Below are positions 5,556 to 39,074 of a stretch of DNA of 40,762 bases, piece after piece. Source of the DNA: Gammaproteobacteria bacterium. Lineage in GTDB: Bacteria > Pseudomonadota > Gammaproteobacteria > Methylococcales > Methylomonadaceae. Each line of letters starts with the position of its first letter. Within the stretch, counting starts at the first letter, position 1. The notes under the pieces are model-generated. The model had not been told where the DNA came from and made no database searches. It saw nothing but the letters and a program-made list of their open reading frames with translations. The stretch lies in contig JAHJSQ010000130.1 in assembly GCA_018830325.1 (NCBI GenBank), positions 1-40,762 on the forward strand, given 5' to 3'. The position numbers and the translations under genes were made by a program.

Positions 5556-6088
5556 ATTTTGCAATACAGTTTTGCAATAGATTAGCAGAAAAACATTTCA
5601 GTTCGGATAGTTGTTTTACTGCATTTGAATAAAACTTAATTATTTAATTAAAATATTAAAAAATTTGACTAAAAAAATAATTTTGGCAAACAATGGCGCG
5701 CCATAGAAAACTAACTTAGGATTTGACCATAAATAACATCTCTATTTCTTATGACAGGATCTTCAGGAGTCTGGGTCGAGCAGGTTTTTGCTCTCGCAAC
5801 ATGTGCTTTCACCCAGCACCTAAGCCCCATAGCCCATTGGCTTATGGCCAACTATCTTGGATAATTAAGGCGCTAGGCCTGTCAAGCGAGCAACCGAACC
5901 TATTAAAAACACATAGACCTGAAGTTGCTTGTCACGAAATTCTTATGACGAAACTTAAATCCGCTAAGTTCAATCGGTAATTTCACACACGCAAATCGAT
6001 ACAGCAACTTTAGACGATTTCAATAGCCTAATGGCCTGACTTACCAAGCTAAAAAACCACATTCGCTCCGAACTCTAAATTTAAAACG
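5556..6088. other. Divergent intergenic region between the TPR lipoprotein gene and hemA
   Basis: 533 bp without a supported gene. The first 150 bp are very AT-rich (about 5630-5690) and should carry promoters for one or both divergent genes, but no convincing -35/-10 pair was found. Family A element copy 1 fills 5719-5942. The last 140 bp before hemA show nothing recognisable. Confidence 0.6.
5719..5942. mobile_element. Family A palindromic MITE, copy 1 (224 bp)
   Basis: Begins GGATTTGACCATAAATAAC and ends with the degenerate complement GTCACGAAATTC. It is flanked on both sides by TTA (5716-5718 and 5943-5945), read as a 3-bp target duplication. Inside lies the conserved inner stem beginning ACCCAGCACCTAA with CCATAGCC..GGCTTATGG, and CCTGTCAAGCGAG near the right end. 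It is the most diverged complete copy. Confidence 0.8.
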
Positions 6089-7348
6089 ATGACACTTCTT
6101 GCCGTAGGGATAAATTACAACACCGCCCCCGTTTCTATCCGAGAAAGGCTAGCTTACCCTGCCGAAATATTGGATTCATCACTCAAAGATCTATGGCGTT
6201 TAAAGGATATATCCGAAGCCGCTATTCTATCGACCTGCAACCGAACGGAATTTTATTGCGAATCATCCAATGAAAATAAACACATTTTGATCGATTGGGT
6301 CGCTCAAACCCGTAACATCAAGCCTAACGATTTGACCCCCTATCTTTACACCTACAACGATAACCAGTTAATTCGGCATATGTTTCGAGTTGCATGCGGC
6401 TTGGACTCCATGGTCCTCGGCGAACCGCAAATATTAGGTCAAATGAAAGCCGCTTATCAAGCCGCTAATGAAGCGGGCACCTTGGGCAAATATTTAGGTA
6501 AGCTCTTTCAGCATACTTTTTCCGCGGCAAAAAAAGTCAGAACCGATACCGCCATAGGATCGAGCCCGGTTTCAGTAGCCTTCGCCGCCGTGCAACTGGC
6601 ACAACAAATCTTCGATAAATTAAGCGAGCAAACCGCGATTCTAATCGGCGCGGGCGAAACCATCGAATTGACGGCACGGCATTTGGTCCAACATGGCATC
6701 GGACGCATCATCATCGCCAATCGAACCTATGATAAAGCGCACGCCTTGGCGACGCGCTTTAACGGTTATGCCATTGCGCTATCGGAATTACCGATGCACT
6801 TGGCCGAAGCCGATATCGTCGTTTCATCGACAGCAAGCTCACTGCCGATTTTAGGGAAGGGTCGAGTAGAAAGTGCCATCAAAAAACGCAAACACAAGCC
6901 AATGTTCATGGTCGACTTGGCAGTTCCGCGCGACATAGAATCAGAAGTCGAACAACTGAACGATGTCTATCTCTATACGGTCGACGACCTCAAAAACACG
7001 ATCGACCAAAACATGGATAACCGGCGCAAAGCCGCCGAACAAGCGGAAGAAATCATCGATACTCAGGTCGAACATTTTCTTTCCTGGTTGCGTTCGCAAG
7101 GCGCGTTAACCACGATCAAAGACTACCGCATTCAGGCCGAGCAAATTCGCGACGACGCGTTACGCAAAACATTAAATCAATTACAAAGCGGCATTTCCGC
7201 CGAAGAAGCGCTGCAGAGACTCGCTCATACATTGACTAACAAGCTAATCCATACGCCCAGTGCGCAAATTCGGGAAGCCGGCACCAACGAAAGACACGAC
7301 TTAATAGCGGCGGCCCGCGAAATTTTCAAATTGAACAACACACAATGA
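6089..7348 (+). CDS. hemA: Glutamyl-tRNA reductase
   Basis: 419 residues, typical for HemA, which reduces Glu-tRNA to glutamate-1-semialdehyde with NADPH, the first step of C5 tetrapyrrole synthesis. The catalytic Cys lies in [13 protein letters not shown] (about residue 50). The signature [22 protein letters not shown] follows at about 96-117, then the NADPH-binding domain with [15 protein letters not shown] (about 185-200), and a C-terminal helical dimerisation domain. The stop overlaps the prfA start in ATGA. The hemA-prfA-prmC order is conserved in Gammaproteobacteria. Confidence 0.98.
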
Positions 7349-8430
7349 AGCCATCCATAGAACACAAATTAGCCAACTTAAGCGAACGTTTCGATGAAAT
7401 CACCGCCTTATTGGCCGAGCCCGAAGTACAAGCCAATCAGAATAAATTCCGCTCATTGAGCCAAGAATACGCTCAAATCAACCCGATTGTCACATGCTAT
7501 AAACGCTATCTCGATACCGCCGAAAATCTAGCCGGGGCGCAAGAAATGGCAAAAGACCCGGACCCGGATCTGCGCGAAATGGCCCACGAGGAAATACTCG
7601 CCGCCGAAAAACAACAAAAGGTCATTGAGCAAGAACTGCAGATTTTATTATTGCCGAGAGACCCTAACGACAACAGAAACATTTTCCTGGAAATCCGCGC
7701 CGGGACCGGCGGCGATGAAGCCGCGATATTTTCAGGCGATCTCGCGCGCATGTATCAGCGCTATGCCGAGAAAAAAGGCTGGAAGACCGAGATTATCAAT
7801 GAAAACGAAGGCGAACATGGCGGCTATAAGGAAATTATCCTGCGTGTAACCGGCCAAGATGTCTATTCGCAACTCAAATTCGAATCGGGAGCACATCGAG
7901 TACAACGCGTCCCGGAAACCGAGTCCCAGGGGCGCATCCATACTTCGGCTTGCACCGTTGCAGTCATGCCCGAAGTCGAGGAAGTCGATGCTATCGACAT
8001 TAATCCCGCAGACCTTCGTATCGATACGTATCGCTCATCCGGCGCGGGCGGTCAACATGTCAACAAAACAGACTCGGCAATCCGCATCACTCATCTTCCG
8101 AGCGGCATCGTCGTCGAATGTCAGGACGAACGCTCACAACACAAAAACCGTGCCCGAGCGATGTCGTTATTGCAATCGCGCCTATTATCGGCCGAACAGG
8201 AAAAACATCAAGCCGAACAACAGGCGAATCGCAAACTTCAAGTCGGCAGCGGCGACCGCTCCGAGAGGATTCGCACCTACAATTACCCGCAGGGGCGCAT
8301 GACCGACCACCGAATCAATCTGACGCTGTATAAACTTGACGAGATCATGGAAGGCGGACTCAATCATGTCATCGAGCCGTTAATTAACGAGCATCAAGCT
8401 GAACTATTGACACAACTGGGCGAAAATTAA
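7345..8430 (+). CDS. prfA: Peptide chain release factor 1
   Basis: 361 residues. RF1 reads UAA and UAG stop codons and triggers peptide release. The GGQ catalytic motif is in [15 protein letters not shown] (about 225-240). The tripeptide anticodon region reads [14 protein letters not shown], with P-E-T in the place usually occupied by P-A-T or P-V-T. The GGQ glutamine is the expected substrate for methylation by PrmC, whose gene starts 4 bp downstream. Start overlaps the hemA stop. Confidence 0.98.
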
Positions 8431-8434
8431 ACCG

Positions 8435-9280
8435 ATGCCCACCGTTCAATCGGCATTGGCACACGCGGCCCAAAGTTTGAGTTTCGTTTCCGAATCGCCC
8501 TTGCTCGACGCCGAAATTCTGCTCTGCCTCGCGCTCGATAAAGACCGCTCTCATCTGCGCGCATGGCCGGATAAAAAGTTATTACCCGAACAAAACAGCC
8601 ATTTCAAAGCGCTACTGCAAAAACGGCTTTCCGGCATGCCGATCGCATACATCACCGGCAACCGCGAATTCTGGTCGCGTGATTTCGAAGTTAACCGCGA
8701 CGTGCTGATCCCAAGGCCCGACACCGAACTACTAATCGAACTGGCCTTGCAACGGATACCGGAACGGCAACCTTACCGACTGATCGATTTAGGAACCGGA
8801 TCCGGTATCATAGCCATTACCCTGGCCGCCGAGCGCCCCGATAGCGAAGTCATTGCCACCGACTTCAGCACTAACGCGCTGACAATCGCCCGCCGAAATG
8901 CCCAGGGACACAATGTTCGGAACATCCAATTTTTGCAAAGCGATTGGTTTGGGGCGATAAGCGACTCGACGCTGTTCAATCTTGTCGTCAGCAACCCGCC
9001 CTATATCGCGGATTACGACCCGCACTTAACCGAAGGCGATGTCAGATTCGAACCCATGTCCGCATTGATCGCGGACAATCATGGCTTGAGTGATATCGAG
9101 CGCATCGCGACCGCCGCCAGACGACATTTGCTTCCTCAAGGTCACTTATTGATCGAACACGGCTACAATCAACAAGATCAAGTCCAGGCTATCTTCAGCC
9201 AATTGAATTACCGTAATATCGTCACCTATCACGATCTTTCAGGTCAGCCTCGGGTCACTTATGGACAATCGTGTCCATAG
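8435..9280 (+). CDS. prmC: Release factor glutamine methyltransferase
   Basis: 281 residues. An S-adenosylmethionine-dependent methyltransferase that methylates the GGQ glutamine of RF1 and RF2. It has an N-terminal helical domain (1-75), then REFWSRDFEVNRDVLIPRPDTE, the SAM-binding loop LIDLGTGSGIIAITLA (about 114-128) and the catalytic NPPY in VVSNPPYIADYDPHL (about 187-190). It is the last gene of hemA-prfA-prmC. Family A copy 2 is inserted only 12 bp past its stop. Confidence 0.97.
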   Translation: MPTVQSALAHAAQSLSFVSESPLLDAEILLCLALDKDRSHLRAWPDKKLLPEQNSHFKALLQKRLSGMPIAYITGNREFWSRDFEVNRDVLIPRPDTELLIELALQRIPERQPYRLIDLGTGSGIIAITLAAERPDSEVIATDFSTNALTIARRNAQGHNVRNIQFLQSDWFGAISDSTLFNLVVSNPPYIADYDPHLTEGDVRFEPMSALIADNHGLSDIERIATAARRHLLPQGHLLIEHGYNQQDQVQAIFSQLNYRNIVTYHDLSGQPRVTYGQSCP

Positions 9281-9292
9281 CGATTAAATTTA

Positions 9293-9592
9293 GGAACGAG
9301 CATCGAGTAACTTCTTCAAATGCAGGAAGGGGGGTCGGCGGCTCGATTGACAGGTATCGGCGGCAAGGCAGATTTTTGCTCCTGCAAAATCTGCATTCAT
9401 GCCATCCATGGCAATCAGATTCCGCCGTCAAGCCAACATGGATGTATTTACCCAGCACCTAAATTCCATAGCCCATTAGCCATGGTTAATTGTCTTGGAT
9501 AATTTAGGTGCTGGGTTTACGGCATCCTGTCAAGCGAGTCACCGATCCTCCACAAAGCTTAATGTTTTGAGAAATTATTTTGTGCATATTCC
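9293..9592. mobile_element. Family A palindromic MITE, copy 2 (300 bp)
   Basis: Outer ends are degenerate (GGAACGAGCATCGAG at the left, ATATTCC at the right) but the flanks are still TTA on both sides (9290-9292, 9593-9595). The interior is well conserved: GGCTCGATTGACAGG, a GCAGATTTTTGCTCC hairpin module, CCATCCATGGCAATCAG, the inner stem ACCCAGCACCTAAATT paired with AATTTAGGTGCTGGGT, and CCTGTCAAGCGAG. It fills almost the whole gap between prmC and the JAMM gene. Confidence 0.82.
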
Positions 9593-9626
9593 TTAAATTA
9601 TCTATACGCCAACAACTTAAACAATA

Positions 9627-10040
9627 ATGCAAACTTCAGAAATTCATATTCCCCGAAAAATCACCAATCAACTGCTGCATCTCGCGCAATTGTCACCCGA
9701 AGCCGAGGTCTGCGGACTGATCGGAAGCCTGAACGGCATTCCGAACCATTGCTACCCGGTCGACAATAGCGCCGATCACCCTGAAAACCGGTTTTTATTG
9801 GATCCCAAACAGCAAATTGCTGCGATGGGACAAATGCGCGAAAATGGTGAGGAATTGTTCGCGATTTATCACTCTCACCCGACAGCGCCGGCATTTCCTT
9901 CAAAAATCGATTTGAAAATGGCAAACTATCCTGAAGCACTCAATTTGATCATTTCGCTTAATACGAAAGGCGTACTGGAAATGCGCGGCTTCCGGATCGC
10001 TGAACAAAAGGCTGAGGAAGTCCCGTTGATTTTGGGCTAA
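9627..10040 (+). CDS. JAMM/MPN-domain metalloprotease-like protein (Mov34/MPN/PAD-1 family)
   Basis: 137 residues, essentially one MPN domain. The zinc motif is complete: an upstream glutamate in EVCGLIG (about 31-37) and HSHPTAPAFPSKID, which fits HxHx7SxxD exactly (about 81-94). Bacterial single-domain members remove C-terminal extensions from ubiquitin-like sulfur carriers or act in cysteine/thiamine-type pathways, but no sulfur carrier or ThiF/MoeB gene is adjacent, so the substrate is unknown. It is convergent with the Uma2-family gene that ends 30 bp away. Confidence 0.88.
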   Translation: MQTSEIHIPRKITNQLLHLAQLSPEAEVCGLIGSLNGIPNHCYPVDNSADHPENRFLLDPKQQIAAMGQMRENGEELFAIYHSHPTAPAFPSKIDLKMANYPEALNLIISLNTKGVLEMRGFRIAEQKAEEVPLILG

Positions 10041-10070
10041 TAGTTGGTTTTGAAGCAACAAAATCGTTCC

Positions 10071-10646
10071 TCAGTCATCGCCATCGTTACCAAGGCATAA
10101 GCCTTCATAAATATCGCCTATTTCGACAACACAATCGATCGATGCAAAAAAAACGGCCTGGCCTTGCTGAAACAGCAGCAAATCCCATTGTTCATCGCGC
10201 CGGTAACATTCGACACGCTGCGTATCCTGAGCGATCAACACATACTCTTCGAGACTGGTTAATTTCCGATAGTGATGAAATTTCTCGGAGCGATCGTAAC
10301 GCTCGGTTGCGTCGGAGAGTATCTCGACGATCAATTTCGGCTGAGTGTTGAAATGCTCATGAGTATCGTCAGCCGAACAGGTAACATGCAGATCGGGATA
10401 GAAAAAATTATCGTCCGTTTCGGTTTGCACCCGGACCTTCATTTCGCCTGAATGAACTCGGCAAGGCGAACCGCGCAAATGTGCATGCACATGAGCGATC
10501 AGGTTCATTGCGATCGTGTCATGCGCACGCTTAACGCCGACCATCGCATAAACTTCTCCCCCGACATACTCATGCTTGATGTCACTGAGTAACTCGCCTT
10601 GCAAATAATCCTCTATGCTTATCTTCAGTTTTTCCGCAAATGCCAT
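10071..10646 (-). CDS. Uma2-family putative restriction-endonuclease-fold protein (first copy)
   Basis: 191 residues from the ATG at 10646. An in-frame start at 10718 would add 24 residues lacking family resemblance. Family features are YLQGELLSDIKHEYVGGEVYAMVG at the N-terminus, then the PD-(D/E)xK-like core with YPDLHVTC and PKLIVEILSDATERYDRSEKFHHYRKL. Uma2 (DUF820) proteins have a nuclease-like fold but their biological role is not settled. It is downstream of gatB on the same strand, separated by family B element 10698-10866. A second, different Uma2 gene lies between gatB and gatA. Confidence 0.85.
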   Translation of the reverse strand: MAFAEKLKISIEDYLQGELLSDIKHEYVGGEVYAMVGVKRAHDTIAMNLIAHVHAHLRGSPCRVHSGEMKVRVQTETDDNFFYPDLHVTCSADDTHEHFNTQPKLIVEILSDATERYDRSEKFHHYRKLTSLEEYVLIAQDTQRVECYRRDEQWDLLLFQQGQAVFFASIDCVVEIGDIYEGLCLGNDGDD

Positions 10647-10697
10647 ATAAACCGCGCCTATTCCGTTGGATGGGCCGGAATTCCGCCCATCCATAAA

Positions 10698-10866
10698 CCT
10701 AAAAAGAGCTGTTGACATGTGTTGTAGACCGTTCGTGCTGAGCTAAGTCGAAGCATGAAGGGTCTACAACACTTTCACCGGCTTGGTGAGGCCTCAAACT
10801 ACCGTTCACCCTTCGACAGGGCTCAGAGCGAACGGTAGTTTGAGGCTCTCAACTGCTCTTTTTAGG
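10698..10866. mobile_element. Family B MITE-like element, copy 1 (169 bp)
   Basis: Terminal inverted repeats CCTAAAAAGAGCTGTTGA (10698-10715) and its complement at 10849-10866 match at 17 of 18 bases. Both sides are flanked by ATAAA (10693-10697 and 10867-10871), read as a 5-bp target duplication. Internally there are two perfect inverted repeats: GTTGTAGACC/GGTCTACAAC (10721-10770) and a 17-bp stem GCCTCAAACTACCGTTC with its complement (10791-10846). It lies between gatB and the downstream Uma2 gene. Confidence 0.78.
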
Positions 10867-10873
10867 ATAAATC

Positions 10874-12313
10874 TTACCTTTTCAACTTAGTTTTCAAAAT
10901 CTTATTGACCTCTGCCGGATTCGCCTTACCCTGCATTTCCTTCATGACTTGGCCGACAAAAAAGCCGAAGACTTTATCCTTACCGCCGAGGTATTGTTCG
11001 ACTTGACCAGGATTGTCGGCGATGATTTTATCGATGATCGCCTCGATCGCGCCGGTATCGGTGATTTGCTTTAAACCTTGGCTTTCGATGATTTGATCGG
11101 CCGTTTCTTGGCCTTGCCACATCGCCTCGAAGACTTGTTTTGCGATTTTTCCCGAAATCGTGTCATCGGCGATACGTTTCAACAAGCCCGCCAAACGCTC
11201 GGCATCGACAGGACATTGACCGACTTCTAACCCGGCCTTGTTCAGAGCGCCGAGCACGTCGCCGGTCACCCAATTTGTACAAATCTTCGCTTCGCCGCCG
11301 GACGCTTCGACCAATGCTTCGTAATAATCGGCTAATTGCCTCGACGAAGTCAGCGTAGCCGCACTCTCATCGTCCTGACCGTATTGCTCGATAAAACGCC
11401 GTTTCTTCGCATCGGGCAATTCCGGTAAAGTGGCGCGTACTTCGTCTTTGAAGGCTTCGGTAATCTCGACCGGCAATAAATCGGGGTCGGGAAAATAACG
11501 ATAGTCGTTCGCCTCTTCTTTGCCTCGCATCGAGCGGGTTTCATCTTTGTTCGCGTCGTAAAGCCGCGTTTCCTGAACGACCTTGCCGCCGCCTTCGATC
11601 AGGTCGATCTGACGTTCGATTTCGTGATTAATCGCTTTCTCAACGAAGCGGAACGAGTTGATGTTTTTGATCTCGGCGCGCGTGCCGAATTCCGCTTGGC
11701 CTCTCGGACGCACCGAAACGTTTGCGTCGCAACGGAACGAACCTTCTTGCATGTTGCCGTCGCAGATTTCCAGATAGCGCACCAGTTCGTGCAGCTTGCG
11801 CATATAGGCGACCGCTTCTTTCGCCGAACGCATGTCGGGTTCCGAAACGATTTCCAGCAATGGCGTGCCGGCACGATTCAAATCGATGCCGGTTAGGCCG
11901 TGAAAATCCTCATGCAAGGATTTTCCGGCATCTTCCTCTAAATGCGCTCGCGTCACGCCGACGCGTTTCGTTGCCCCATCGACGTCGATATCCAGGTGCC
12001 CATTGCCGACGATCGGCAACTCGAACTGACTGATCTGATAACCTTTCGGCAGGTCCGGATAAAAATAATTTTTGCGCGCGAAGACCGAGTAAGGCGCGAT
12101 TTCCGCTTCGATCGCGATACCGAATTTGACGGCCATGCGCACGGCCTCTTGATTCAACACCGGCAACACGCCGGGCAAGCCTAAATCGACCGCGCAAGCC
12201 TGTGTGTTCGGTTCGGCGCCGTAGGCTATCGATGCGCCTGAAAAAATTTTGGATTTTGTCGCGAGTTGTGCATGAATTTCCAACCCGATGACGACTTCCC
12301 ATTGTGAATTCAT
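10874..12313 (-). CDS. gatB: Aspartyl/glutamyl-tRNA amidotransferase subunit B
   Basis: 479 residues, normal for GatB, the kinase subunit of the amidotransferase that converts Glu-tRNA(Gln) and/or Asp-tRNA(Asn) to the amide form. It opens [22 protein letters not shown]. The signature [17 protein letters not shown] is at about 87-103 and [17 protein letters not shown] at about 167-183. The C-terminal YqeY-like helical domain ends [11 protein letters not shown]. It forms the gatCAB set with gatA and gatC upstream on the same strand, with a Uma2-family gene in between. Confidence 0.98.
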
Positions 12314-12331
12314 TGCTAGTTCCTTATTGAT

Positions 12332-12937
12332 TTATTCGGCAAAAACTTCGGCCAAATCGATTTTTAGTTCGGGAAAAAGATAGGGCTGTGCCGTTTCGTC
12401 GCCTGCATAGAGGGCGTGGAGCCGATAGGCTTCGCCATCCCGGTCCAACACAAATTGCTGCACGGCGCGTTCATACGGAAACACCAACCAGTATTCGCCG
12501 ACGCCGCTTTCCTGATACAGATCGTATTTGAAGCGAAGCTCCTTCTTATTATTGCCCGGAGAAAGCACTTCGATGATCCAATCGGGCGCGCCGTCGCAGC
12601 CTTGTTCGGTCAATTTGTTTTTATCGCAAATCACGCACAAATCGGGCTGTACGACACTAAACACTTCGCGGTCGCTCAATTTCGATTTGCGGCGATCGTA
12701 AAGCTTGACGTCGAACGGGGCCGAGAAGACTTCGCAGCGTTTATCTGCCATATAATTAACGATCGGCTTGAAAAGATTGCGAGAAATCCGCTGATGCTTG
12801 ACATTCGGCGCCGGCGACATCGTAAAGATCTTGCCCTTGATCAACTCGACCGTTTGATCCAAACTCCACGTCAAATAATCGGCGTAGCTGTAACTCCCGT
12901 TCATATCCAATTGCGACAATTCGGTAACCTTGGCCAT
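12332..12937 (-). CDS. Uma2-family putative restriction-endonuclease-fold protein (second copy, within gat operon)
   Basis: 201 residues from the ATG at 12937, preceded by GAGG at 8 nt; the codon two positions upstream is TTG. Core family features are YLTWSLDQTVELIKGKIFTMSPAPN, VVQPDLCVICDKNK and PDWIIEVLSPGNNKKELRFKYDLYQESGVGEYWLVFP, where D, E and K can make a PD-(D/E)xK-like site. It lies between gatA and gatB with gaps of about 10 and 18 bp, so it must be transcribed with them. Function unknown. It differs clearly from the copy at 10071, so the pair is not a recent duplication. Confidence 0.88.
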   Translation of the reverse strand: MAKVTELSQLDMNGSYSYADYLTWSLDQTVELIKGKIFTMSPAPNVKHQRISRNLFKPIVNYMADKRCEVFSAPFDVKLYDRRKSKLSDREVFSVVQPDLCVICDKNKLTEQGCDGAPDWIIEVLSPGNNKKELRFKYDLYQESGVGEYWLVFPYERAVQQFVLDRDGEAYRLHALYAGDETAQPYLFPELKIDLAEVFAE

Positions 12938-12947
12938 ATCCAACCTC

Positions 12948-14399: not shown

Positions 14400-14415
14400 A
14401 GCCTTTCCCCATCCT

Positions 14416-14703: not shown

Positions 14704-15407
14704 TTTACAACTCCATTAATCATCAATCCGAAAACATGACTGTTCGCAGCTCAAAATTCGTGCATTTCATAACTTTTTGGAAACATCTTAAGGATTTGGT
14801 CGAAAATAACCTCCCTATATTTATGGAGGATTCGGTTGCTCGATTGGCAGGCGTCGGCGGCGGCAGGGCAGATTTTTGCTCCTCGGCAATTGCTAAGTTA
14901 CAAGGATGTAACGAATGCAGAAAATGCAGGAGCATTTTTCTGCCCTGCATTGCCCTAATACACGCCATCCATGGCAATCAGTAACCGCCACAAGCCTAAT
15001 CTGACGTATTTACCCAGCACCTAATCCCATAGCTCATGATTAATTGTCTTGGATAATTTAGGTGCAGGGTCTGTCAATCGAGTTACCGAACCCTCAACAA
15101 AGCTCATAGCTGCAGGAGGTTATTTATCACGAAATCCTAAGGCGTATCCGTATCTGGTTTACCTAATAAATCCGATTTACCAATTCTCGCGAATCCGGCG
15201 GCATTGCACGACCGTTATTTCCATGCCCAATTATAGTCCCTATGACCCCGCCCTTGCCGGAAAAAGGCGTTTAATTGCAGTGCGGCAACAAGCGAATATT
15301 GAAACGGAATTTTAAATTGCGTTAAGTATAATACTTTATATCTTGCTCAATTACCCGCTTGATTGATAAAGTAATACAATTTATTCGCTCAGGATACAGG
15401 TTAATAA
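14704..15407. other. Divergent gatC-mreB intergenic region
   Basis: 704 bp without a supported gene. Family A copy 3 occupies 14792-15137, so the region was probably about 355 bp before insertion. The stretch next to mreB is AT-rich, and TATAAT at 15327-15332 could be a -10 box of mreB, but no good -35 lies 16-18 bp upstream. Confidence 0.6.
14792..15137. mobile_element. Family A palindromic MITE, copy 3 (346 bp, longest)
   Basis: Begins GGATTTGGTCGAAAATAACC and ends GGTTATTTATCACGAAATCC. The flanks are TAA on both sides (14789-14791, 15138-15140). The interior repeats the family modules GGCAGGCGTCGGCGGCGG, CCATCCATGGCAATCAG, ACCCAGCACCTAA, AATTTAGGTGC and CTGTCAATCGAGTTACCGAACC. It has an additional hairpin, GGGCAGATTTTTGCTCCT facing AGGAGCATTTTTCTGCCC, with a small GTTAC/GTAAC hairpin inside it. 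Confidence 0.87.
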
Positions 15408-16451
<1,044 letters not shown>

Positions 16452-16517
16452 CTTCAACCGTAAAACAATACTCGCCACGCCGATTTATTCGGCAGAATCG
16501 AAGCTTTGAATAGCTTA

Positions 16518-16639
16518 GGATTTGGTCGTAAATAACTTCCTTATTTTATGGAGGGTTCGGCTGCTCGATTGGCAGGCCCAACGAGTTACCGAAACCTCAA
16601 CACAGCTCATAGTTACAGGGCGTTATAATCACGAAATCC
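16518..16639. mobile_element. Family A palindromic MITE, copy 4 (122 bp, short form)
   Basis: Begins GGATTTGGTCGTAAATAACT and ends GTTATAATCACGAAATCC, with TTA on both sides (16515-16517, 16640-16642). Only the outer modules remain (GGTTCGGCTGCTCGATTGGCAGG directly joined to CGAGTTACCGAAACC); the inner stem and central hairpins are missing. It lies between mreB and mreC. Confidence 0.85.
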
Positions 16640-16642
16640 TTA

Positions 16643-18209: not shown

Positions 18210-18221
18210 ATCGTTTGTCTC

Positions 18222-26548: not shown

Positions 26549-26553
26549 CAATA

Positions 26554-28967: not shown

Positions 28968-29024
28968 ACTTTAAATCCTCTGCTATACTGAAGCGAAAAA
29001 TTAAATCAACCGGCAGGACTTGCT

Positions 29025-29582: not shown

Positions 29583-29930
29583 CGAAACCAGGAGGAACCG
29601 AGCATTAGGTGTTCCGCCGACTGTTCTCACGATCTCGGTCTTTGAATACTAGAGTATATGCACACAAAAAGCATCGGGACTCTTAATAAAACCAATATAT
29701 CATGTCCGCCGATAACCCTCTTTGCTTAGCCAAATTGCACTCATCCGAATGTGTACAGCACTTTCATTTTCCGGGCTGATTAATAAATTTTCACGACCTA
29801 CTATGAAAGTGCGGACCGAACTCCTCATAAAATAGAAAAGATATTTATGACCACACCCTAAGCACTGCCGAAATTTGAAGTGCGATGGTTACATATTCTT
29901 AGAGCGCTGTATACGTAACAGAACTGAAGT
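29583..29930. other. Intergenic region with an imperfect inverted repeat
   Basis: 348 bp between the secreted-protein gene and the end of the convergent VOC gene. CACTTTCAT (about 29759) and ATGAAAGTG (about 29803) face each other, and CACTTTCATTTTCCGGG recurs near 33150. No gene or clear terminator otherwise. Confidence 0.5.
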
Positions 29931-31196: not shown

Positions 31197-31369
31197 GGTA
31201 TGTCTTCCTGAAATTTGTTCTTGCATCAGGCCGTTACCGGCCCATTAAACAAATTTATTAAGCACAAGACATACCATATCGCGACAACACCTATTTTTAT
31301 TCAATATCAATTACGTACAAAAAACCCTCTGAAACTAACGATTTGTTTATGCGTCAAGATTGTGCATTA

Positions 31370-31413
31370 GGATTTGGTCATAAATAACTTCCCTATTTTT
31401 AATGCAAGGTTCA
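31370..31413. repeat. Family A remnant, one end only (copy 5)
   Basis: GGATTTGGTCATAAATAACT and the following CCCTATTTTTAATGCA match the GGTC-type end of family A, including the preceding TTA (31367-31369). The similarity stops after about 44 bp. It lies between the SSS symporter gene and the VOC gene. Confidence 0.8.
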
Positions 31414-31427
31414 TGAAGATATTTGCA

Positions 31428-32852
31428 CTAAGAAACGTTCACCTTATGTTTATTCCATAAATGCCGGAATAACTCGGCTAAACAAAGAATGATCAATCCC
31501 GTAACTATCCCGACCAAACCTTCGTAAGCTTTCTCGTGCAAATCCAGATAACGCCATAATATGGCGACCGCCAAGCCGCTCGCGACTGCAGCAAGACTCG
31601 CGAATTGAGTGGGCCGCATTCCCACGCATAACACCAACAGTAAAGGCGCAAAGGCGCTTGCCAATCCGGACCATGCCATGATTACCAAGCTGAACACACT
31701 ATGATTATTTGCTAAGGCACCGAGTAAAGCCAAGAATGTCACGACAATGGTTACCCCTTTGATCAAATACTGGTTTTCGATTTGATGAGGCAAGATGTCG
31801 TGAGTCAACGCCGCCGAACAGCTTAACACCACCGAATCGGCAGTGGACATAGTGGCTGCGAATAAACCCGCTAAAATCAAACCGACCATGGCTGGAGACA
31901 ACAACTCCATAGCCATCGTCGGTAACGCCAACTCGGCATCGAAAGCCTCCGTATCGACCAGATAAATGCGGGAAAGCAGCCCTACGCCGGTGGCCGCCAA
32001 GTAAAACGCAATATACCAAAGGTAATACCACAAACGTGCTTTGTTCATACTGGCGGTATCGTCAAGCGTCATGAAGCGCACCATGATATGAGGCTGACCG
32101 ATGACCGACAATCCGGCAAAAAGCCAACTGATTGCGAATAATAAACCGCCGGCAATACCCGGCAAGGCCAAAGACTTAGGGAACCAGTCTAAAAAACCGT
32201 CAATCGCTTGCATTTGCATTAGGGTCGATTCGATCCCACCCAACGCCTGAGTGGCTGTCACCAATAACACACTCATGGCAACGATCATCACTATCGACTG
32301 CGCAGCATCCGTCCAAATAGAGGCTCGAATACCGCCCGCGAAGCAATACAAGGTAACTAATACGCTACCCATAACCGCTCCTGCCCATGACGGCCATCCG
32401 AAAAGTACATGCAATGCCTTACTACCGGCGACCAGTTGCGCGCTGGCGTAAGCCAATAGAAAAACCAACGAAATCACGCCGATAACCCGTTGCAGCGCCG
32501 GCTGATTCCCCCCTGCGCTCCAGACGCTAAGCACGCCGGCGTAACTGACTTCACCGGTGGTTGTGGCCGCTGCCTTAAGTCGTTTATGCACCAATAGCGA
32601 TGCTAAAAAATCTCCGGCAATCCATCCTATCATTAACCAAATGGCAGCGAGTCCGGTGACATAGGTATAACCGATAACGCCGATGAACATATAGCCACTG
32701 TTATTCGTAGCCACCGCCGATAAACCAACCAGCCAAGGTTTGACATTGCCGCTGGCCAAGTAATAATCCTGCTTGGTGCCACGGCTTTGCCAGAAGGATG
32801 CTAAGCCAATTAGCGTAAACAGCAGTAAAAAAAAACTAAACGAGAGAACCAT
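31428..32852 (-). CDS. Sodium:solute symporter family (SSS) transporter, PutP/PanF-like
   Basis: 474 residues starting MVLSFSFFLLLFTLIGLASF, with AGGAG 7 nt upstream. An in-frame extension to 33053 would add 67 residues of non-hydrophobic sequence and overlap a repeat, so it is rejected. About 13 membrane helices. Family features are GNVKPWLVGLSAVATNNSGYMFIG (Na+ site region of helix 1) and FAGGIRASIWTDAAQSIVMI, the SSS signature. The substrate cannot be read from sequence; members carry proline, pantothenate or compatible solutes. Its location near the ectoine genes makes an osmolyte plausible (inference). Confidence 0.87.
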   Translation of the reverse strand: MVLSFSFFLLLFTLIGLASFWQSRGTKQDYYLASGNVKPWLVGLSAVATNNSGYMFIGVIGYTYVTGLAAIWLMIGWIAGDFLASLLVHKRLKAAATTTGEVSYAGVLSVWSAGGNQPALQRVIGVISLVFLLAYASAQLVAGSKALHVLFGWPSWAGAVMGSVLVTLYCFAGGIRASIWTDAAQSIVMIVAMSVLLVTATQALGGIESTLMQMQAIDGFLDWFPKSLALPGIAGGLLFAISWLFAGLSVIGQPHIMVRFMTLDDTASMNKARLWYYLWYIAFYLAATGVGLLSRIYLVDTEAFDAELALPTMAMELLSPAMVGLILAGLFAATMSTADSVVLSCSAALTHDILPHQIENQYLIKGVTIVVTFLALLGALANNHSVFSLVIMAWSGLASAFAPLLLVLCVGMRPTQFASLAAVASGLAVAILWRYLDLHEKAYEGLVGIVTGLIILCLAELFRHLWNKHKVNVS

Positions 32853-33290
32853 TAATACTCCTATCTGGCCAAAAAAAACTCTAATTTTCAGGAGGTGCAG
32901 GGTATTCGAAAAAGGTGCAGGAGAGTGCTGCTGAACAGACGCTCCTCGCATCGTCACCAAATTTGAACGCTTTTTCAGCATGAACCTAAAAGAGCTGCCG
33001 GTATTTGTTGTAGATCGTTCTTGCTGGGCCAAATCAAATAATGAAGGACTCAAGACAAACGGCAGTTTGAGGCACTCAACTGCTCTTATTACTGTGAAAG
33101 CTCGAAGATTCGAAGTCTTTATCTAATTTTTCGATATGAAACACAATGCCGGCTCTCCCACTTTCATTTTCCGGGGCGATTGCCAGGCATTCATGAACGT
33201 AAGAAAGAAGGAATTAATCCCGTTTGAGTCATTTGGCTATGGCCTGTTACGAACACCATCAGACTTGTGTTTATCAACAGAAGACAGAAG
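32853..33290. other. Intergenic region upstream of the SSS symporter gene
   Basis: 438 bp. It holds a degenerate family B element (32985-33090) and a copy of CACTTTCATTTTCCGGG near 33150 that is shared with about 29759. It should contain the symporter promoter, but none is clear. Confidence 0.5.
32985..33090. repeat. Family B element, degenerate shorter copy 2
   Basis: Begins CCTAAAAGAGCTG and ends CTCAACTGCTCTT, the family B termini. In between it keeps GTTGTAGATCGTTCTTGCTG and AACGGCAGTTTGAGGC from the longer copy at 10698-10866. The right end is eroded and no target duplication is visible. Confidence 0.65.
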
Positions 33291-34175
33291 TTAATGAGTG
33301 TTATCTTCGCCGGGCAACAACTCGATAAACGGCTCAAAGTCTTTTAAGGCCTGCAACGCAGGGTCATCGGCAAACTTATCGCGATAATCCTCAGTGCGTT
33401 GCAGCGCCTCGGATAAACAGTTAACGGCCTCTTCATATTGATTCAATGCGGTATACGCACAAGCCAATTGGTAAAAAGCATGGCCGTTTTCAGGGTCGAT
33501 TTTCAACGCTTGCTGACATAGATTGACAGCCCACTGCGGCTCCCCCATATCGAGTACCGCATCAGCCTTATAAGTCAATGCTTCGCAATCCTCGGGACGC
33601 AATTTTAAAATTTGATCGTAGATGGCGATTTTATTGGCCAAACTACTTGCTTGCCCTGCCCTGAGCCACAGTGATTGCACATCTTGCGTCCGCTCGATAT
33701 CCTCGCCGATTTTCTCAATCAATTGTGCTTCTTTGTTGAGTTGTTGCTCGACAATTGCCAAACGCTCTTCGTATTCATGGACCAGTTTCGATACTTTCTT
33801 ATCCGCCATGGACTGTACACGCTCTTTGATATCTCTGAGCGAGGTCCAACCCAGCAGCACCAAAATAGTACTGGCACCGGCAATCAAGTAGAAAAAATAA
33901 GTGACTGTATTGGTGGCGTAAGTGACGCCTCTATCGACCGAGCTGAGCTCTCTATCCACAATTTGCTGAATCAGCTCATTCCTCTGCGCTGCCATGTCCA
34001 TACGCAACTGCTTAAGTTCATCCAGCATATAGCGCTCGATGAACGGACTATATAAAGGCTTATCCAAAGACTCAATCGCATCTAAGCGCTCTTGAACCTC
34101 TGCTTCATCGTCGACTGCCTCGCCCATCACGGAACAAGGCGCCAGCACGATCAACACCATTAACATTCTAAGCAT
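33291..34175 (-). CDS. TPR membrane protein overlapping ectD
   Basis: 294 residues from the ATG at 34175, which lies 5 bp before the ectD stop ends; the ATG at 34166 just after that stop is an alternative. It has a signal peptide-like start (MLRMLMVLIVLAPCSVMGEA), a periplasmic helical stretch (about 25-90), a membrane helix at about 91-110 (VTYFFYLIAGASTILVLLGW), a coiled coil (about 120-165), and a C-terminal set of three or four TPR motifs (AIYDQILKLRPEDCEALTYKA, AVNLCQQALKIDPENGHAFYQLACAY). The TPR part would face the cytoplasm. Function unknown; the overlap suggests translational coupling with the ectoine hydroxylase. Confidence 0.82.
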   Translation of the reverse strand: MLRMLMVLIVLAPCSVMGEAVDDEAEVQERLDAIESLDKPLYSPFIERYMLDELKQLRMDMAAQRNELIQQIVDRELSSVDRGVTYATNTVTYFFYLIAGASTILVLLGWTSLRDIKERVQSMADKKVSKLVHEYEERLAIVEQQLNKEAQLIEKIGEDIERTQDVQSLWLRAGQASSLANKIAIYDQILKLRPEDCEALTYKADAVLDMGEPQWAVNLCQQALKIDPENGHAFYQLACAYTALNQYEEAVNCLSEALQRTEDYRDKFADDPALQALKDFEPFIELLPGEDNTH

Positions 34176-35127
34176 AAATCGACTGGTCGGCAGCAGCGAT
34201 AAAAGGCCGCGGCTCAATAGCACGTATAGCCTTGCGACTGCAAAGGTATTCGGGACGAGGCGATAAACCGCAAAACGGCCATGTCACTCGATTACTGATC
34301 GCGTTATAGACGAAAAAGACATTGGAGCGAGGCCACGGGGTGATATTACTGTTCGAACCATGCATCATATTACTGTCGAAAATTAAGACACTACCAGGTT
34401 TTCCGATAGCCGATACAATGCCGCCATCGGCAACCAAGCTAGCCAAGCATTCATCGCTGGGTATCCCGTACTCCTGCTTTTTCAACGAGACCGAATAATG
34501 ATTCTCCGGCGTTTCTTCTTCGCAAACGACAAATTTTTTATGCGATCCGGGAATCAACATTAAAGCCCCGTTACGCTGGTCGTTTTCAGTCAGAATAATG
34601 GACATGCTGAGCGCACGCATTCTGGGCATGCCGTCTTCAACATGCCAGGTTTCAAAGTCGGAATGCCAATTAAATTCCTTACCACGAAAACCCGGTTTAT
34701 AGTTTAAGCGCGACTGATGAATGTAAACCCGATCATTCAAAAGATGCTGGGCCAACCCCGCTAAACGATTATCGGCAGCTAATCTTTTAAAGACCGGACT
34801 GATCTCATGAATTTTAAAGAGTGAACGGATTTCGTCGCTGGATAATTCAGTTATCGCTTCCGCTGAGGCTTTTATCTCTTTATCGTCATTCAAACGATTG
34901 AGCTCTTGCCTGAAACAATCGACTTCCCGCTCATTAAAAACATTATCAAGAATAAGAAAACCCTGTCGTTCATAACGAGCTTGCAAGTCCTCGGTAATAA
35001 GGCTTGGGTTAGCGGTTTGAGCATAAACCACAGGGTCTACGCGTTGAATTATTTTCGGTTTATCACCGTTACGAGATTGATAAACATCTTCGCTTTGTTC
35101 GGACTGTTCGGCTTTCTCGGTAATCAT
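34168..35127 (-). CDS. ectD: Ectoine hydroxylase EctD
   Basis: 319 residues. An Fe(II)/2-oxoglutarate dioxygenase that converts ectoine to 5-hydroxyectoine. The EctD consensus segment is present as FNWHSDFETWHVEDGMP (about 152-168), with iron ligands H155 and D157; the third ligand is H256 in SNMMHGSNSN. QSRLNYKPGFRGKEF precedes it, as in known EctD proteins. It is on the same strand as the ectABC-ask operon, 398 bp beyond the ask stop, so it may have its own promoter. Length slightly exceeds the usual about 300 because of a 25-residue N-terminal extension. Confidence 0.95.
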   Translation of the reverse strand: MITEKAEQSEQSEDVYQSRNGDKPKIIQRVDPVVYAQTANPSLITEDLQARYERQGFLILDNVFNEREVDCFRQELNRLNDDKEIKASAEAITELSSDEIRSLFKIHEISPVFKRLAADNRLAGLAQHLLNDRVYIHQSRLNYKPGFRGKEFNWHSDFETWHVEDGMPRMRALSMSIILTENDQRNGALMLIPGSHKKFVVCEEETPENHYSVSLKKQEYGIPSDECLASLVADGGIVSAIGKPGSVLIFDSNMMHGSNSNITPWPRSNVFFVYNAISNRVTWPFCGLSPRPEYLCSRKAIRAIEPRPFIAAADQSIYA

Positions 35128-35525
35128 TGAACATTTAACCCATATTGATTAAAGACTTCACGACAACAGATACCCCCGGTCATCGGTCATTCCCAACTTA
35201 CGCAGGGCTTACCCGTACATCTTAAGTTTATTGAAAAAAGACGGTTAAACCATTCATTGCTCGACTGACTTGCCATGAATGGCTTAACCATGGACGAAAG
35301 TTGACTTGCGACTCGCCTTAATCCGCTACCGCTCTAGCTGTCAACTCATAAGCACCTTAAGCATTCGGTCATAAATAACTTCCCTATTTTTGGAGGGTTC
35401 GGCCGCTCGATTGGCAGGACGCCGTGAACCCACACCTCATACCTTCATAAAATCAGCCCTTTTTTGAGTACAAAAGGAGTAATGTATCGTTTTGGCCAAA
35501 CTGAAGAAGGGTTTCAGCAGCACCA
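35128..35525. other. ask-ectD spacer
   Basis: 398 bp, no gene supported. It contains a one-ended family A remnant (35361-35437). The remaining sequence next to ectD presumably holds its promoter; none is evident by eye. Confidence 0.5.
35361..35437. repeat. Family A remnant, one half (copy 6)
   Basis: GCATTCGGTCATAAATAACT, CCCTATTTTTGGAGGGTTCGG and CTCGATTGGCAGGACGCC match the GGTC-type half. It then runs into GTGAACCCACACCT, which corresponds to the start of the inner stem in copy 7 (GTGAACCCAGCACCT) and stops there. TAA precedes it (35358-35360). Confidence 0.8.
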
Positions 35526-36968
35526 TCAGGACGCGAGGCATATTGCAATTCCGTGATCATGGACCTCCACCAGATGACTATGCAAACTTTTGATCGCGTC
35601 AGTGTAGGCATCTTCATCTATCACAAACTGCATATCGACTTGACGCATTGACTGATGCATCGCCAACACGCTGATCTGTTTCTCTGCCAGTGCCGAGACA
35701 GTTTTAGCCAGAATACCGGGAATTTTCATGTCACTGCCGATGGCGGAAACAATCGAAACTTTTTGCTGATTGATTTCGGCATCCGGATAGATCTCTTGCA
35801 AAGCATCGCGGATGCGGCGGATTTTTTTCAGACTGGCAGATAAATAATGGGTAATGGTATTGGCATTAATATCTTTGGAAACAATATGCGCTCTGAAGCG
35901 ACGGATCAGCGCCAGGATTTCCTGATCGTAATTGTGGATCTCGCCGGCCATGTTTTGATCGAATACCTCGAAAGCATAGACGCCTTTACACCCGGCAATA
36001 ATTTCTACACAAGGCTTACTGCTGACATAGTCGCCGGTAATCAGCGTCCCGGCATGATCCGGCTCAAAGGTATTTCTGACGCGAAGCGCTATCGCGTTCT
36101 GACGCAAGCCTTTTGCTGCCTTGGGATGAATCGCTTCCATGCCCAGGTTCGCAAGCTGGTCGGCCACATCGTAATTGGTACGGCCAATCGGCACGGCCTT
36201 GTCTTCACCTACCAGACGCGGATCTGCGCTGCTGAGATGAAATTCCTTATGAATGATGGCTTCATCCGCCTCTGTCAGCACCGCAATCCGGCTAAAGGTC
36301 ATTTCACTGTAGCCCCGATCAAACGTTGACATCAACCCGTCAATACTGTGCGCATAGCCTGTGGCAATTGGTAGCTGCTGACTCAGATCGATCTCAGCAA
36401 AGGCTTTTTTAATGCGTTCGTCGAGCGTCATGTGTTTATCGGTCTGCCAACCGGTCAGATCGACAAAGACTGCGTTAATACCGTCTTGTTGCAGCAACTG
36501 GACAGTGTTCCACGCACTGTGCGCCTCACCGATACTAGCCAGCATTTCCCGAACGGTAGAAAGATGTGCATCCAGTGAAAAATGACCATGCTGACAAAGA
36601 CGCTGCAAATCGGCCAGACAGCGTTCCGTGTCATCAAGCCGTTCGCCAATGAACGCGTCGGCTTTTTTGATGGCCTCAGCAGTGTCAAAAATGTTGGCAT
36701 TGATTGCAAACATTTCTTGCTTAAGTGTTACCAACGAAGCCTGCCAGCCGGCATCGTTTAGACTGTTGGCAAACTGACCATAAATTCCGGCATGACCGTT
36801 TTTTTTGTGCTCCAGCAACATATCGGTGATGCCACCGTAGGCGGAGACCACAAAAATACGCTGATACAGATCCTCACGATGGACAGGCTTGAGAATGATA
36901 TTGTCGCGCACTGCGACATAATCACTCATGGATGTGCCGCCGATTTTTTCAACGGTGTGAAACGTCAT
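35526..36968 (-). CDS. ask: Ectoine-type aspartokinase (Ask_ect)
   Basis: 480 residues from the ATG at 36968, with AGAGAGGA 5 nt upstream; a longer frame to 36992 is less likely. It starts MTFHTVEKIGGTSMSDY, the aspartokinase KxGGTS motif, then an amino-acid kinase domain (to about 335, with FDRGYSEMTFSRIAVLTEADEAIIHKEFHLSSADPRLV) and C-terminal ACT domains (from about 385, VSIVSAIGSDMKIPGILAKTVSAL). It phosphorylates aspartate. Its place as last gene of ectABC-ask indicates the specialised ectoine aspartokinase, which is known to be relatively insensitive to feedback. Confidence 0.95.
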   Translation of the reverse strand: MTFHTVEKIGGTSMSDYVAVRDNIILKPVHREDLYQRIFVVSAYGGITDMLLEHKKNGHAGIYGQFANSLNDAGWQASLVTLKQEMFAINANIFDTAEAIKKADAFIGERLDDTERCLADLQRLCQHGHFSLDAHLSTVREMLASIGEAHSAWNTVQLLQQDGINAVFVDLTGWQTDKHMTLDERIKKAFAEIDLSQQLPIATGYAHSIDGLMSTFDRGYSEMTFSRIAVLTEADEAIIHKEFHLSSADPRLVGEDKAVPIGRTNYDVADQLANLGMEAIHPKAAKGLRQNAIALRVRNTFEPDHAGTLITGDYVSSKPCVEIIAGCKGVYAFEVFDQNMAGEIHNYDQEILALIRRFRAHIVSKDINANTITHYLSASLKKIRRIRDALQEIYPDAEINQQKVSIVSAIGSDMKIPGILAKTVSALAEKQISVLAMHQSMRQVDMQFVIDEDAYTDAIKSLHSHLVEVHDHGIAICLAS

Positions 36969-37027
36969 AACGTCCTCTCTTACTTCGGGCATGCCGAGGG
37001 CCTCTACCGCCCTGCCATGATTGAAAA

Positions 37028-37432
37028 TTAGTCACTGACTGTTTCGGCTTCCAGTTCATAGGCACCTTCTGCGTTGTGTACTTCCTTGCCGTTTAGAGGC
37101 GGATTAAAAACACAAGCCAATTTCAGTTCCTTGAAGGCACGCAGAATATGCCGATCGTGTTGATCCAGGTTATAGAGTGTGCCTGGGGTGATAGAATACT
37201 TCTTGCCATCGTCCAGCGTTTCCACTTCGCCTTCACCACTGATGCAATACACCGACTCTAGGTGATTCTGGTAATGCATGCGAAAATCGGCACCGGCAAA
37301 AATGGTGGTGATATGAAAGGAATAGCCCATACCGTCATCCTTCAGTAGCATTCGGGTGCTTTCCCAGTTGCCGTCAGGTGAAACGATGCGTCTGTTAGTC
37401 TGCTGTGCGTCTTGTAACTGTCTTACGATCAT
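37028..37432 (-). CDS. ectC: L-ectoine synthase
   Basis: 134 residues, the usual EctC size. A cupin-fold enzyme that cyclises N-gamma-acetyl-diaminobutyrate to ectoine. Family signatures are [16 protein letters not shown] at the start, [14 protein letters not shown] (about 34-47), [18 protein letters not shown] (about 54-71) with the metal-site glutamate, and [15 protein letters not shown] (about 86-100) with the ligand His. The gap to ectB is 310 bp, almost all of it family A copy 7. Confidence 0.97.
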
Positions 37433-37485
37433 TTTAGTTCTCTTCAGTAGGTTCTCGAATAGGCTGGTTGGCTCAGCGGGCTTTA

Positions 37486-37742
37486 GGATTTCGTGAAAAA
37501 TAACTTCCTGGAGCTATGAGTTTTGTAGCGGGTTCAGTAACTCGCTTGACAGGACGCCGTGAACCCAGCACCTAAATTATGCAAGACAGTTACCATAGCC
37601 AAAAGGCTATGGAATTTAGGTGCTGGGTGAATACGTCCGTGTAGTCTTGACGGCGGATTTCCCTGCCGCCGACACCTGTCAATCGAGTTACCGAACCTGC
37701 TTACCGTGCATTAAAAATAGGGAAGTTATTATGGCCGAATCC
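37486..37742. mobile_element. Family A palindromic MITE, copy 7 (257 bp), inserted between ectB and ectC
   Basis: Begins GGATTTCGTGAAAAATAACT and ends AAGTTATTATGGCCGAATCC, flanked by TTA at 37483-37485 and 37743-37745. The inner stem is nearly perfect: ACCCAGCACCTAAATT with AATTTAGGTGCTGGGT around CCATAGCC AAAA GGCTATGG. Outside it are AGTAACTCGCTTGACAGG and CCTGTCAATCGAGTTAC. The right-hand TTA is also the complement of the ectB TAA stop. Confidence 0.9.
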
Positions 37743-39074
37743 TTAGTGACCCGCTTTGCTAACCTCTTTACTGACTGAGTAGTCGCCTTCAAAAAAGTCT
37801 TTTCCTTCTGGGATTGTGTCTGCTTTATCACAGACCTCTTTAATGGCTTGCTCCAGAATGTCGATGCCTTTTTCCAGCTCATCATCTGTAATAATCAGAG
37901 GGCACAAGAACTTCACGACATGATCGTCCGCGCCACTGGTTTCAATAATCAGACCTTTCTGAAAACATCTTCGGGTAATCTGACCGGCCAAATCACCGCT
38001 GACACAGTTAATACCCCGGAACATACCTCGCCCATGCGAGTTGAAGTTACCCTCGCCATACTTGGCGACAATAACATCTACACGATCGGCAATGTAACGA
38101 CCTTTGCGCTGGACATCTTTGGCAAAGCAGTCGTCTTTCCAGAAGTGATCAATAGCCGCCTTGGCAGTGACAAAAGCATGATTGTTACCTCGGAAGGTAC
38201 CATTGTGCTCACCCGGCGACCATTGATCGATTTCGGGTTTCATTAACACGATAGCTAACGGCAAACCATAGCCGCTCAGCGATTTCGACAAGGTCACAAT
38301 ATCAGGATAAATTCCGGCTTCTTCAAAGCTGAAGAAAGTGCCGGTGCGACCGCAACCGGCCTGGATATCATCAATAATCAGCAACACATCATGCCGTTTG
38401 CAGATTTCCGACAGGCTTTTTAACCAAGTCATTGAGGCGGCGTTGATACCGCCTTCGCCCTGAACCGTTTCAACGATGACGGCAGCCGGCTTATCGACGC
38501 CACTGCTGGAATCCGACAGCATTTTGTCGAGCAAATTGGTGGTATCGAAATCATCACCCAGATAGCCGTCATAGGGAATACGGGTTGAGCCATGCAAGGC
38601 GATGCCGGCACCGCCACGATGAGTAGAATTTCCGGTAACCGACAGTGATCCCAGCGTCTGGCCATGCCAACCATTGGTAAACGAAATAATGTTTTCACGA
38701 CCGGTTTTTTTGCGGGCGATCTTCAGTGCTGCTTCAACCGCGTTGGTGCCGGTGGGGCCGGTAAACATCACTATGTAGTCCAAGTTCCGAGGCTTAAGGA
38801 TGTACTCATTAAAGCTTTCCAAAAACTCACCTTTGGCGCGGGTATGCAAGTCCAAGCCCTGCGTGATGCCATCATTCTGGATATACTCAAGCAACTTTTC
38901 CTTAAATACCGGGTGATTGTGGCCGTAATTTAGGGAACCTGCACCAGCGAGAAAGTCCAGATATTCATTGCCTTCATGGTCATAGATTTTTGCGCCTTGG
39001 GCACGATCAAACACGCGTGGAAAAGCGCGAGCATACGAACGCACTTCTGATTCAATTTCTTCAAAGATTTTCAT
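37743..39074 (-). CDS. ectB: Diaminobutyrate--2-oxoglutarate transaminase
   Basis: 443 residues. A class III PLP aminotransferase that makes L-2,4-diaminobutyrate from aspartate semialdehyde. It begins MKIFEEIESEVRSYARAFP, typical of EctB. The cofactor region reads LLIIDDIQAGCGRTGTFFSFE (about 232-252), and the Schiff-base lysine is in VTLSKSLSGYGLPLAIV (about 264). AGGAGAG precedes the ATG. The stop TAA coincides with the target duplication of the downstream element. Confidence 0.97.
   Translation of the reverse strand: MKIFEEIESEVRSYARAFPRVFDRAQGAKIYDHEGNEYLDFLAGAGSLNYGHNHPVFKEKLLEYIQNDGITQGLDLHTRAKGEFLESFNEYILKPRNLDYIVMFTGPTGTNAVEAALKIARKKTGRENIISFTNGWHGQTLGSLSVTGNSTHRGGAGIALHGSTRIPYDGYLGDDFDTTNLLDKMLSDSSSGVDKPAAVIVETVQGEGGINAASMTWLKSLSEICKRHDVLLIIDDIQAGCGRTGTFFSFEEAGIYPDIVTLSKSLSGYGLPLAIVLMKPEIDQWSPGEHNGTFRGNNHAFVTAKAAIDHFWKDDCFAKDVQRKGRYIADRVDVIVAKYGEGNFNSHGRGMFRGINCVSGDLAGQITRRCFQKGLIIETSGADDHVVKFLCPLIITDDELEKGIDILEQAIKEVCDKADTIPEGKDFFEGDYSVSKEVSKAGH

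What the first reader, a model, noticed from the sequence alone, without database searches (positions are those of the whole stretch)
5716..37745. Seven-copy family of palindromic MITEs with 3-bp TWA target duplications
Five complete copies (5719-5942, 9293-9592, 14792-15137, 16518-16639, 37486-37742) share asymmetric ends: one GGATTTGGTCATAAATAACT, the other GGATTTCGTGAAAAATAACT. Every complete copy is bounded by the same three bases on both sides, TTA in four and TAA in one. The two bounding triplets are direct repeats, not mirror images, so they are target duplications rather than part of the ends. That indicates movement by a transposase in trans. The TNA target resembles the IS1031 group of the IS5 family (from memory). 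Seven copies in 41 kb is a high density. All are intergenic.
Basis: partly seen in the sequence, partly recalled or inferred. Interest (0 to 1): 0.82.

Follow-up and report, generated by a model that had tools for sequence, protein, structure and literature searches.

The report
Nested hairpin transposons of methane-eating bacteria
These repeats are small jumping DNA hairpins without a transposase of their own, very probably moved by an insertion sequence of the little-studied ISAzo13 family, and inside they carry interchangeable smaller hairpins stacked like Russian dolls.

Summary
Five complete palindromic elements and about three remnants lie in the window, each complete copy between identical TWA triplets. 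In the genus loci examined, 51 of 53 elements of the main end type and 19 of 20 of a second type have identical flanking triplets (shuffled maxima 33 and 17). Relatives carry empty sites with one triplet for copies 1, 2 and 4; copy 3 is empty in one, less cleanly. So they are MITEs.

The IS5/IS1031 guess is not supported: 0 of 110 fetched IS4/IS5-type loci have such ends. Full-length ISs with matching ends and 3-bp TWA duplications encode ISAzo13-family transposases. The window's genome has one intact copy, with ends like those of copy 2. The genus is Methylotuvimicrobium (contig lengths).

Unexpected: the interiors are modular and recursively nested. Repeat families with other ends (B, C, E) share the same inner hairpins. 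A 64-bp module R lies next to arms of hairpin S in 92 of 92 units (both arms in 69), with identical 4-bp flanks in 60. How the interiors grow, and what they do, is unproven.

The parts
5716..5945 (.). Copy 1, complete MITE, type A ends, TTA/TTA; between divergently read frames, upstream of hemA
   Evidence: present in G002 and G003; empty with a single CTA in G001, G004, G005
9290..9595 (.). Copy 2, complete MITE, type A2 ends (like the resident ISAzo13 IS), TTA/TTA, carries hairpin modules K and R
   Evidence: empty in 5 of 5 relatives, with a diverged stretch of about 30 bp in the right flank of G002-G004
14789..15140 (.). Copy 3, complete MITE, type A, TAA/TAA, longest in the window, nested modules; between a 95-aa minus-strand frame and mreB
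   Evidence: empty in G001 with small gaps; the same site holds a 160-bp element with another interior in G005
16515..16642 (.). Copy 4, short MITE, type A, TTA/TTA; downstream of mreB
   Evidence: present in G002 and G003; empty with one triplet in G001, G004, G005
37483..37745 (.). Copy 5, complete MITE, type A, TTA/TTA, inner modules P, Q, S and R; downstream of ectB, whose stop codon is the right triplet
   Evidence: same insertion in G004
31367..31410 (+). Left-end remnant, type A
   Evidence: complete element at this site in G004
35358..35432 (+). Left-end remnant, type A, with part of the P stem
29829..29861 (-). Degenerate end-like remnant, 85% to a type A left end
   Evidence: I7
37564..37627 (.). 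Module R (CCCAGCACC...GGTGCTGGG) inside the S-hairpin loop of copy 5, flanked by TGAA/TGAA

Best explanation
The elements are non-autonomous miniature transposons (MITEs) of the ISAzo13 family. SHOWN: paired ends GGA(T/A)..(A)AAATAACTT, 3-bp TWA duplications, empty sites in congeners, and ISs with matching ends and duplications that encode ISAzo13 transposases. INFERRED: an ISAzo13 transposase binds the roughly 24-bp ends in trans and moves or copies the element into a TWA target, as it would its own IS. SHOWN: between the ends lies a variable set of hairpins. A three-way junction (stem P, hairpins Q and S) can carry a further hairpin module K in the Q loop and a 64-bp hairpin R in the S loop. 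INFERRED: these modules entered as separate small insertions that favour hairpin loops, or were exchanged by recombination between repeats, and then spread as passengers of the outer element.
For: Identical flanking triplets in 51 of 53 (A) and 19 of 20 (A2) two-ended elements, shuffled maxima 33 and 17. Empty sites with one triplet for copies 1, 2 and 4. L222 carries a 1493-bp IS, GGATTCCGTCAAAAATAACTTCCC at both ends, TTA on both sides, with PF07592 at 2e-104 and NF033519 at 2.9e-123. The window's own genome has a 1327-bp IS with a 411-aa frame, TTA on both sides and GGAAYGAGCACGAAATAACTTGAR ends. 21 of 60 fetched ISAzo13-bearing loci (19 distinct places) have paired ends with identical triplets, each TTA or TAA; the same scan gives 0 of 20 random 20-kb stretches and 0 of 110 loci with other transposase families. 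ISAzo13 is reported to make 3-bp TSDs (PMC10045372, one passage). Modules; in the reversed control of the module scan 7 clusters against 103, none with more than one motif against 69.
Against: No transposition was observed. An IS with type A ends was seen only outside the genus (L222, L398); the resident IS has A2 ends. G001-G003 carry many MITEs but no ISAzo13 match and G004 only a weak one (3.1e-8), so the elements may be dormant there. 39 of 60 ISAzo13 loci gave no paired ends; many are fragments or lie at contig ends, and a few loci overlap. The IS end scan required identical triplets, so it does not measure TSD frequency. 32 of 92 R units lack identical 4-bp flanks.
Confidence: 0.9

Rival explanations
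1. MITEs of the IS1031 group of the IS5 family.
For: A 3-bp TNA target is recalled for IS1031; IS5/Harbinger relatives also favour TWA (recalled).
Against: None of 110 fetched PF01609, PF13586 and PF13359 loci is bracketed by these ends or passes the paired-end scan, while ISAzo13 elements do.
Confidence: 0.03
2. Fixed regulatory or terminator hairpins kept at their positions by selection.
For: The arms of the P-Q-S core co-vary: 29 double-change cells in 37 unique 99-nt copies against a shuffle mean of 7 and maximum of 16; P stem 67 against a mean of 23 and maximum of 34.
Against: Copies 1, 2 and 4 are absent in congeners as clean empty sites. In the window Rfam finds only four tRNAs at gathering scores. 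Percentage paired is 97.8 but the shuffles keep 96.0 on average. G-U exceeds A-C in cells (73 to 32) but not in positions (16 to 15), so an RNA role is not shown. Covariation can come from subfamily history or copying between arms.
Confidence: 0.05
3. The shared interiors come from homologous recombination or gene conversion among hundreds of repeats, not from insertion into hairpin loops. (This concerns the interior only and can be true together with the best explanation.)
For: Modules Q, S, K and R are shared by repeat families with different ends; copy 3 has different interiors at one site in G000 and G005; no in-place gain of R was seen in the orthologous stretches compared.
Against: 60 of 92 R units have identical 4-bp flanks, TGAA 49 and TAAA 11 (counted with either strand), matching the two main variants of 102 empty S loops (TTCA 85, TTTA 8), which looks like repeated insertion.
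Confidence: 0.45
4. REP/BIME-type elements moved by an HUH (RAYT) transposase.
For: Dense intergenic palindromes.
Against: 3-bp target duplications and paired ends shared with a DDE-transposase IS.
Confidence: 0.02

Closest known systems
ISAzo13 insertion sequence family
   Same: Ends and 3-bp TWA duplications match full-length ISAzo13-family elements found here
   Different: No transposase gene; from 41 bp to 511 bp; interior is stacked hairpins
Correia, ERIC and NEMIS-type bacterial MITEs (recalled) and the MITEs of Thiomargarita (PMC4853749, passages read)
   Same: Short hairpin elements with target duplications, many copies
   Different: Different ends and parents; here interiors are modular and recursively nested
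ISs that target REP palindromes, such as IS1397 and IS621 (PMC1525189, passages read)
   Same: Insertion into palindromic repeats
   Different: Here the inserted unit R is itself a roughly 64-bp hairpin; its mobilizer is unknown
IS1272 inverted-repeat-replacing transposition (PMC5678879, abstract read)
   Same: Hairpins as transposition targets
   Different: IS1272 leaves no TSD; 60 of 92 R units have 4-bp repeats

Membership tests
Bacterial MITE | Short, no transposase gene, terminal inverted repeats | tested here: met
   Two-ended elements of 66-500 bp (A) and 176-450 bp (A2); single ones of 41 and 511 bp
Bacterial MITE | Target-site duplication | tested here: met
   51 of 53 and 19 of 20 identical triplets
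Bacterial MITE | Empty sites in relatives | tested here: met
   Copies 1, 2 and 4; copy 3 in G001 with small gaps; copy 5 could not be tested in the fetched stretches
ISAzo13-derived MITE | Ends match an IS of the family | tested here: met
   Type A: L222 and L398 (outside the genus); type A2: resident IS in G000 and G005
ISAzo13-derived MITE | Partner encodes a PF07592/NF033519 transposase | tested here: met
ISAzo13-derived MITE | Mobilised by that transposase | not testable with these tools
   needs an in vivo or in vitro assay
IS5 / IS1031 | Autonomous IS of that family with the same ends | tested here: not met
   0 of 110 fetched PF01609, PF13586 and PF13359 loci; these are part of the matches listed
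Fixed structured RNA | Present at orthologous positions | tested here: not met
   Empty sites; no Rfam match other than tRNAs in the window

The most novel reading that the evidence does not exclude
A self-building palindrome system: several miniature elements each prefer hairpin loops as targets, so each insertion lands at the tip of an earlier hairpin and offers a new loop. This would yield recursively nested hairpins whose shared module set rides in several transposon shells with different ends, one of them ISAzo13-driven, and which already span at least 2.8% of a 400-kb sample of one methanotroph genome.
Probability: 0.35. Interest if true: 0.75.

Novelty: new variant of a known kind. Interest (0 to 1): 0.55.

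Why it matters
It links a set of MITEs spread through methanotroph genera to the little-studied ISAzo13 family. The one paper that the library search found with both words, ISAzo13 and MITE, does not connect them in the passages shown. Two of the compared genomes are Methylomicrobium sp. wino1 and M. buryatense 5G, the latter a cultured strain (recalled), so mobilisation and effects on neighbouring genes can be tested. If loop targeting is real, it is a simple rule by which long nested palindromes grow, although long palindromes are usually unstable in bacteria (recalled).

Tried and rejected
IS5/IS4-type parents: PF01609 in 5 genomes (100 matches; 30 loci plus 20 further stretches scanned), PF13586 (30 loci), PF13359 (30 loci): none bracketed by the ends. 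L005's 964-bp end pair holds no reading frame of 80 codons or more between its ends. Plasmid collection: no match. Rfam on the window: only four tRNAs. Strand-specific G-U bias as evidence for RNA: 73 versus 32 cells without the fixed wobble position, but 16 versus 15 positions, so not claimed. In-place gain of R at an orthologous empty S loop was looked for in about 50 kb of each of four genomes, the window and 13 kb of G001, and not seen; whole elements differed instead. Earlier TSD counts (34 of 35; 43 of 50) contain overlapping entries, so one search is used. The 113 clusters split some elements in two (copy 3, for one) and include single-motif hits, some of which are chance (7 clusters in the reversed 400-kb control). 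Of the papers fetched I saw an abstract (PMC5678879) or matching passages (PMC10045372, PMC9208149, PMC4853749, PMC1525189); in PMC10969869 the terms sought had no occurrence. Further papers were seen as search listings only.
Full report
Observation. The five complete palindromes are at the stated coordinates and each is flanked by the same triplet. The end pattern has 158 hits at up to 3 mismatches in the window's genome and none for the reversed control. Copy 2 has different ends from the other four; I call the two types A and A2.

Mobility. Among the loci of this genus then held (window, L001-L133, L164-L183, L365-L384) I collected pairs of inverted ends within 620 bp. For A, 53 elements, 51 with identical triplets (TTA 29, TAA 19, CTA 2, ATA 1); shuffling partners gave a mean of 23.3 and a maximum of 33. 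For A2, 20 elements, 19 identical (TTA 10, TAA 9), shuffled mean 9.5 and maximum 17. Orthologous stretches from five congeners gave empty sites with one triplet: copy 1 in G001, G004, G005; copy 2 in all five; copy 4 in G001, G004, G005; copy 3 in G001 only, with gaps near the junction. Copies 1 and 4 are present in G002 and G003, copy 5 in G004. Flanks near the sites are diverged in places: about 30 bp right of copy 2 in G002-G004, and about 180 bp right of copy 4 in G001, G004 and G005, did not align by BLAST. The flanks of copy 5 were not found in the fetched stretches of G001-G003 and only at about 70% in G005.

Organism. Contig lengths equate G004 with Methylomicrobium sp. wino1 (NZ_CP024202.1) and G005 with Methylotuvimicrobium buryatense 5G (NZ_KB455575.1); G002 is probably M. 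alcaliphilum 20Z (recalled). Outside the genus 21 of 38 related genomes have end matches at up to 3 mismatches, control 0 in all 38.

The parent. L222 has two exact end matches 1.5 kb apart; between them lies a 1493-bp IS, flanked by TTA, whose 340-codon frame hits PF07592 (2e-104) and NF033519, ISAzo13 transposase (2.9e-123), with the N-terminal part in another frame. ISAzo13 fragments at 2 places in G008 and 7 in G017 run into the same type of end shortly after the gene. The window's genome has one intact ISAzo13 (C95, 411 aa) and G005 several; their ends are GGAAYGAGCACGAAATAACTTGAR between TTA triplets. A scan for paired GG ends (at least 15 of 24 bases, identical triplets, 1150-1900 bp) found them in 21 of 60 ISAzo13-bearing loci (19 distinct places), in 0 of 20 random 20-kb stretches, and in 0 of 110 loci with PF01609, PF13586 or PF13359 transposases. 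In a sample of 201 family genomes 74 match the ISAzo13 model, 41 above its cut-off; G001-G003 have none and G004 one weak match. A published passage states that ISAzo13 makes 3-bp TSDs (PMC10045372), and a survey passage reports the family in only 3 gammaproteobacterial genomes (PMC9208149).

Interior. Many elements contain a stem P that opens into hairpins Q and S; Q may hold module K in its loop, K may hold further hairpins in its loop, and S may hold R (read from the folds and sequences). In a systematic 400-kb sample of G002 the module scan gives 103 clusters, 69 with more than one motif, spanning 11,341 bases (2.8%); the reversed sequence gives 7 clusters, none with more than one motif. 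That is about one cluster per 3.9 kb, with some elements split and some single hits by chance. The same S, R, Q and K modules also sit inside repeats with unrelated ends (B, TATACC...GGTATA; C, CAGCAATTCCC...GGGAATTGCTG; E, GGTTCCGGAGAG...). Of 92 single R units, 69 have both S arms recognisable beside them, 23 one arm and 0 none; 60 have identical 4-bp flanks, TGAA 49 and TAAA 11, counting either strand; of 102 empty S loops 85 read TTCA and 8 TTTA. In G002 a B-type element lies inside the R of an A-type element. At the site of copy 3, G005 holds a 160-bp element with another interior. I infer insertion into loops, recombination between repeats, or both; the data do not decide.

Structure. 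In 37 unique 99-nt P-Q-S cores, picked by motif, 97.8% of cells pair (slid controls 26-44%, column shuffles 96.0% on average, maximum 96.7), with 29 double-change cells against a shuffle mean of 7 and maximum of 16; for 99 unique P stems 67 against a mean of 23 and maximum of 34. The arms co-vary, but subfamily history or copying between arms explains this as well as selection.

Verdict. MITE reading confirmed; family reassigned from IS5/IS1031 to ISAzo13 with strong support; the recursive module structure is the surprising part and its mechanism is open.

Noticed in passing
window 10694-10870: A second high-copy palindromic family, absent from the same place in G004 and G005 and replaced there by a different hairpin element in G003.
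   Followed up: partly
window 37743-37745: The right target triplet of copy 5 is the stop codon of the ectB frame (443 aa; the family models end at residues 413-417), so the insertion may have reset the end of the protein.
   Followed up: partly
L222 578-1787; rows for G222, G133, G214, G190 and G224: In several genera the ISAzo13 transposase is listed as two overlapping pieces, which suggests a programmed frameshift rather than decay; frames were checked only in L222.
   Followed up: no
L222 about 400-540; L134, L152, L156: Elements with the same ends in other genera carry other palindromes inside (for example a GTTCGCCCTGAGC..TCGAAGGG type), also within the IS itself.
   Followed up: no
L035 1504-1544: A 41-bp minimal copy: two fused ends between TTA triplets, probably an internal deletion of the palindrome.
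   Followed up: no
G002 sample L365-L384: B, C and E are further palindromic repeat families; their parents were not identified.
   Followed up: partly
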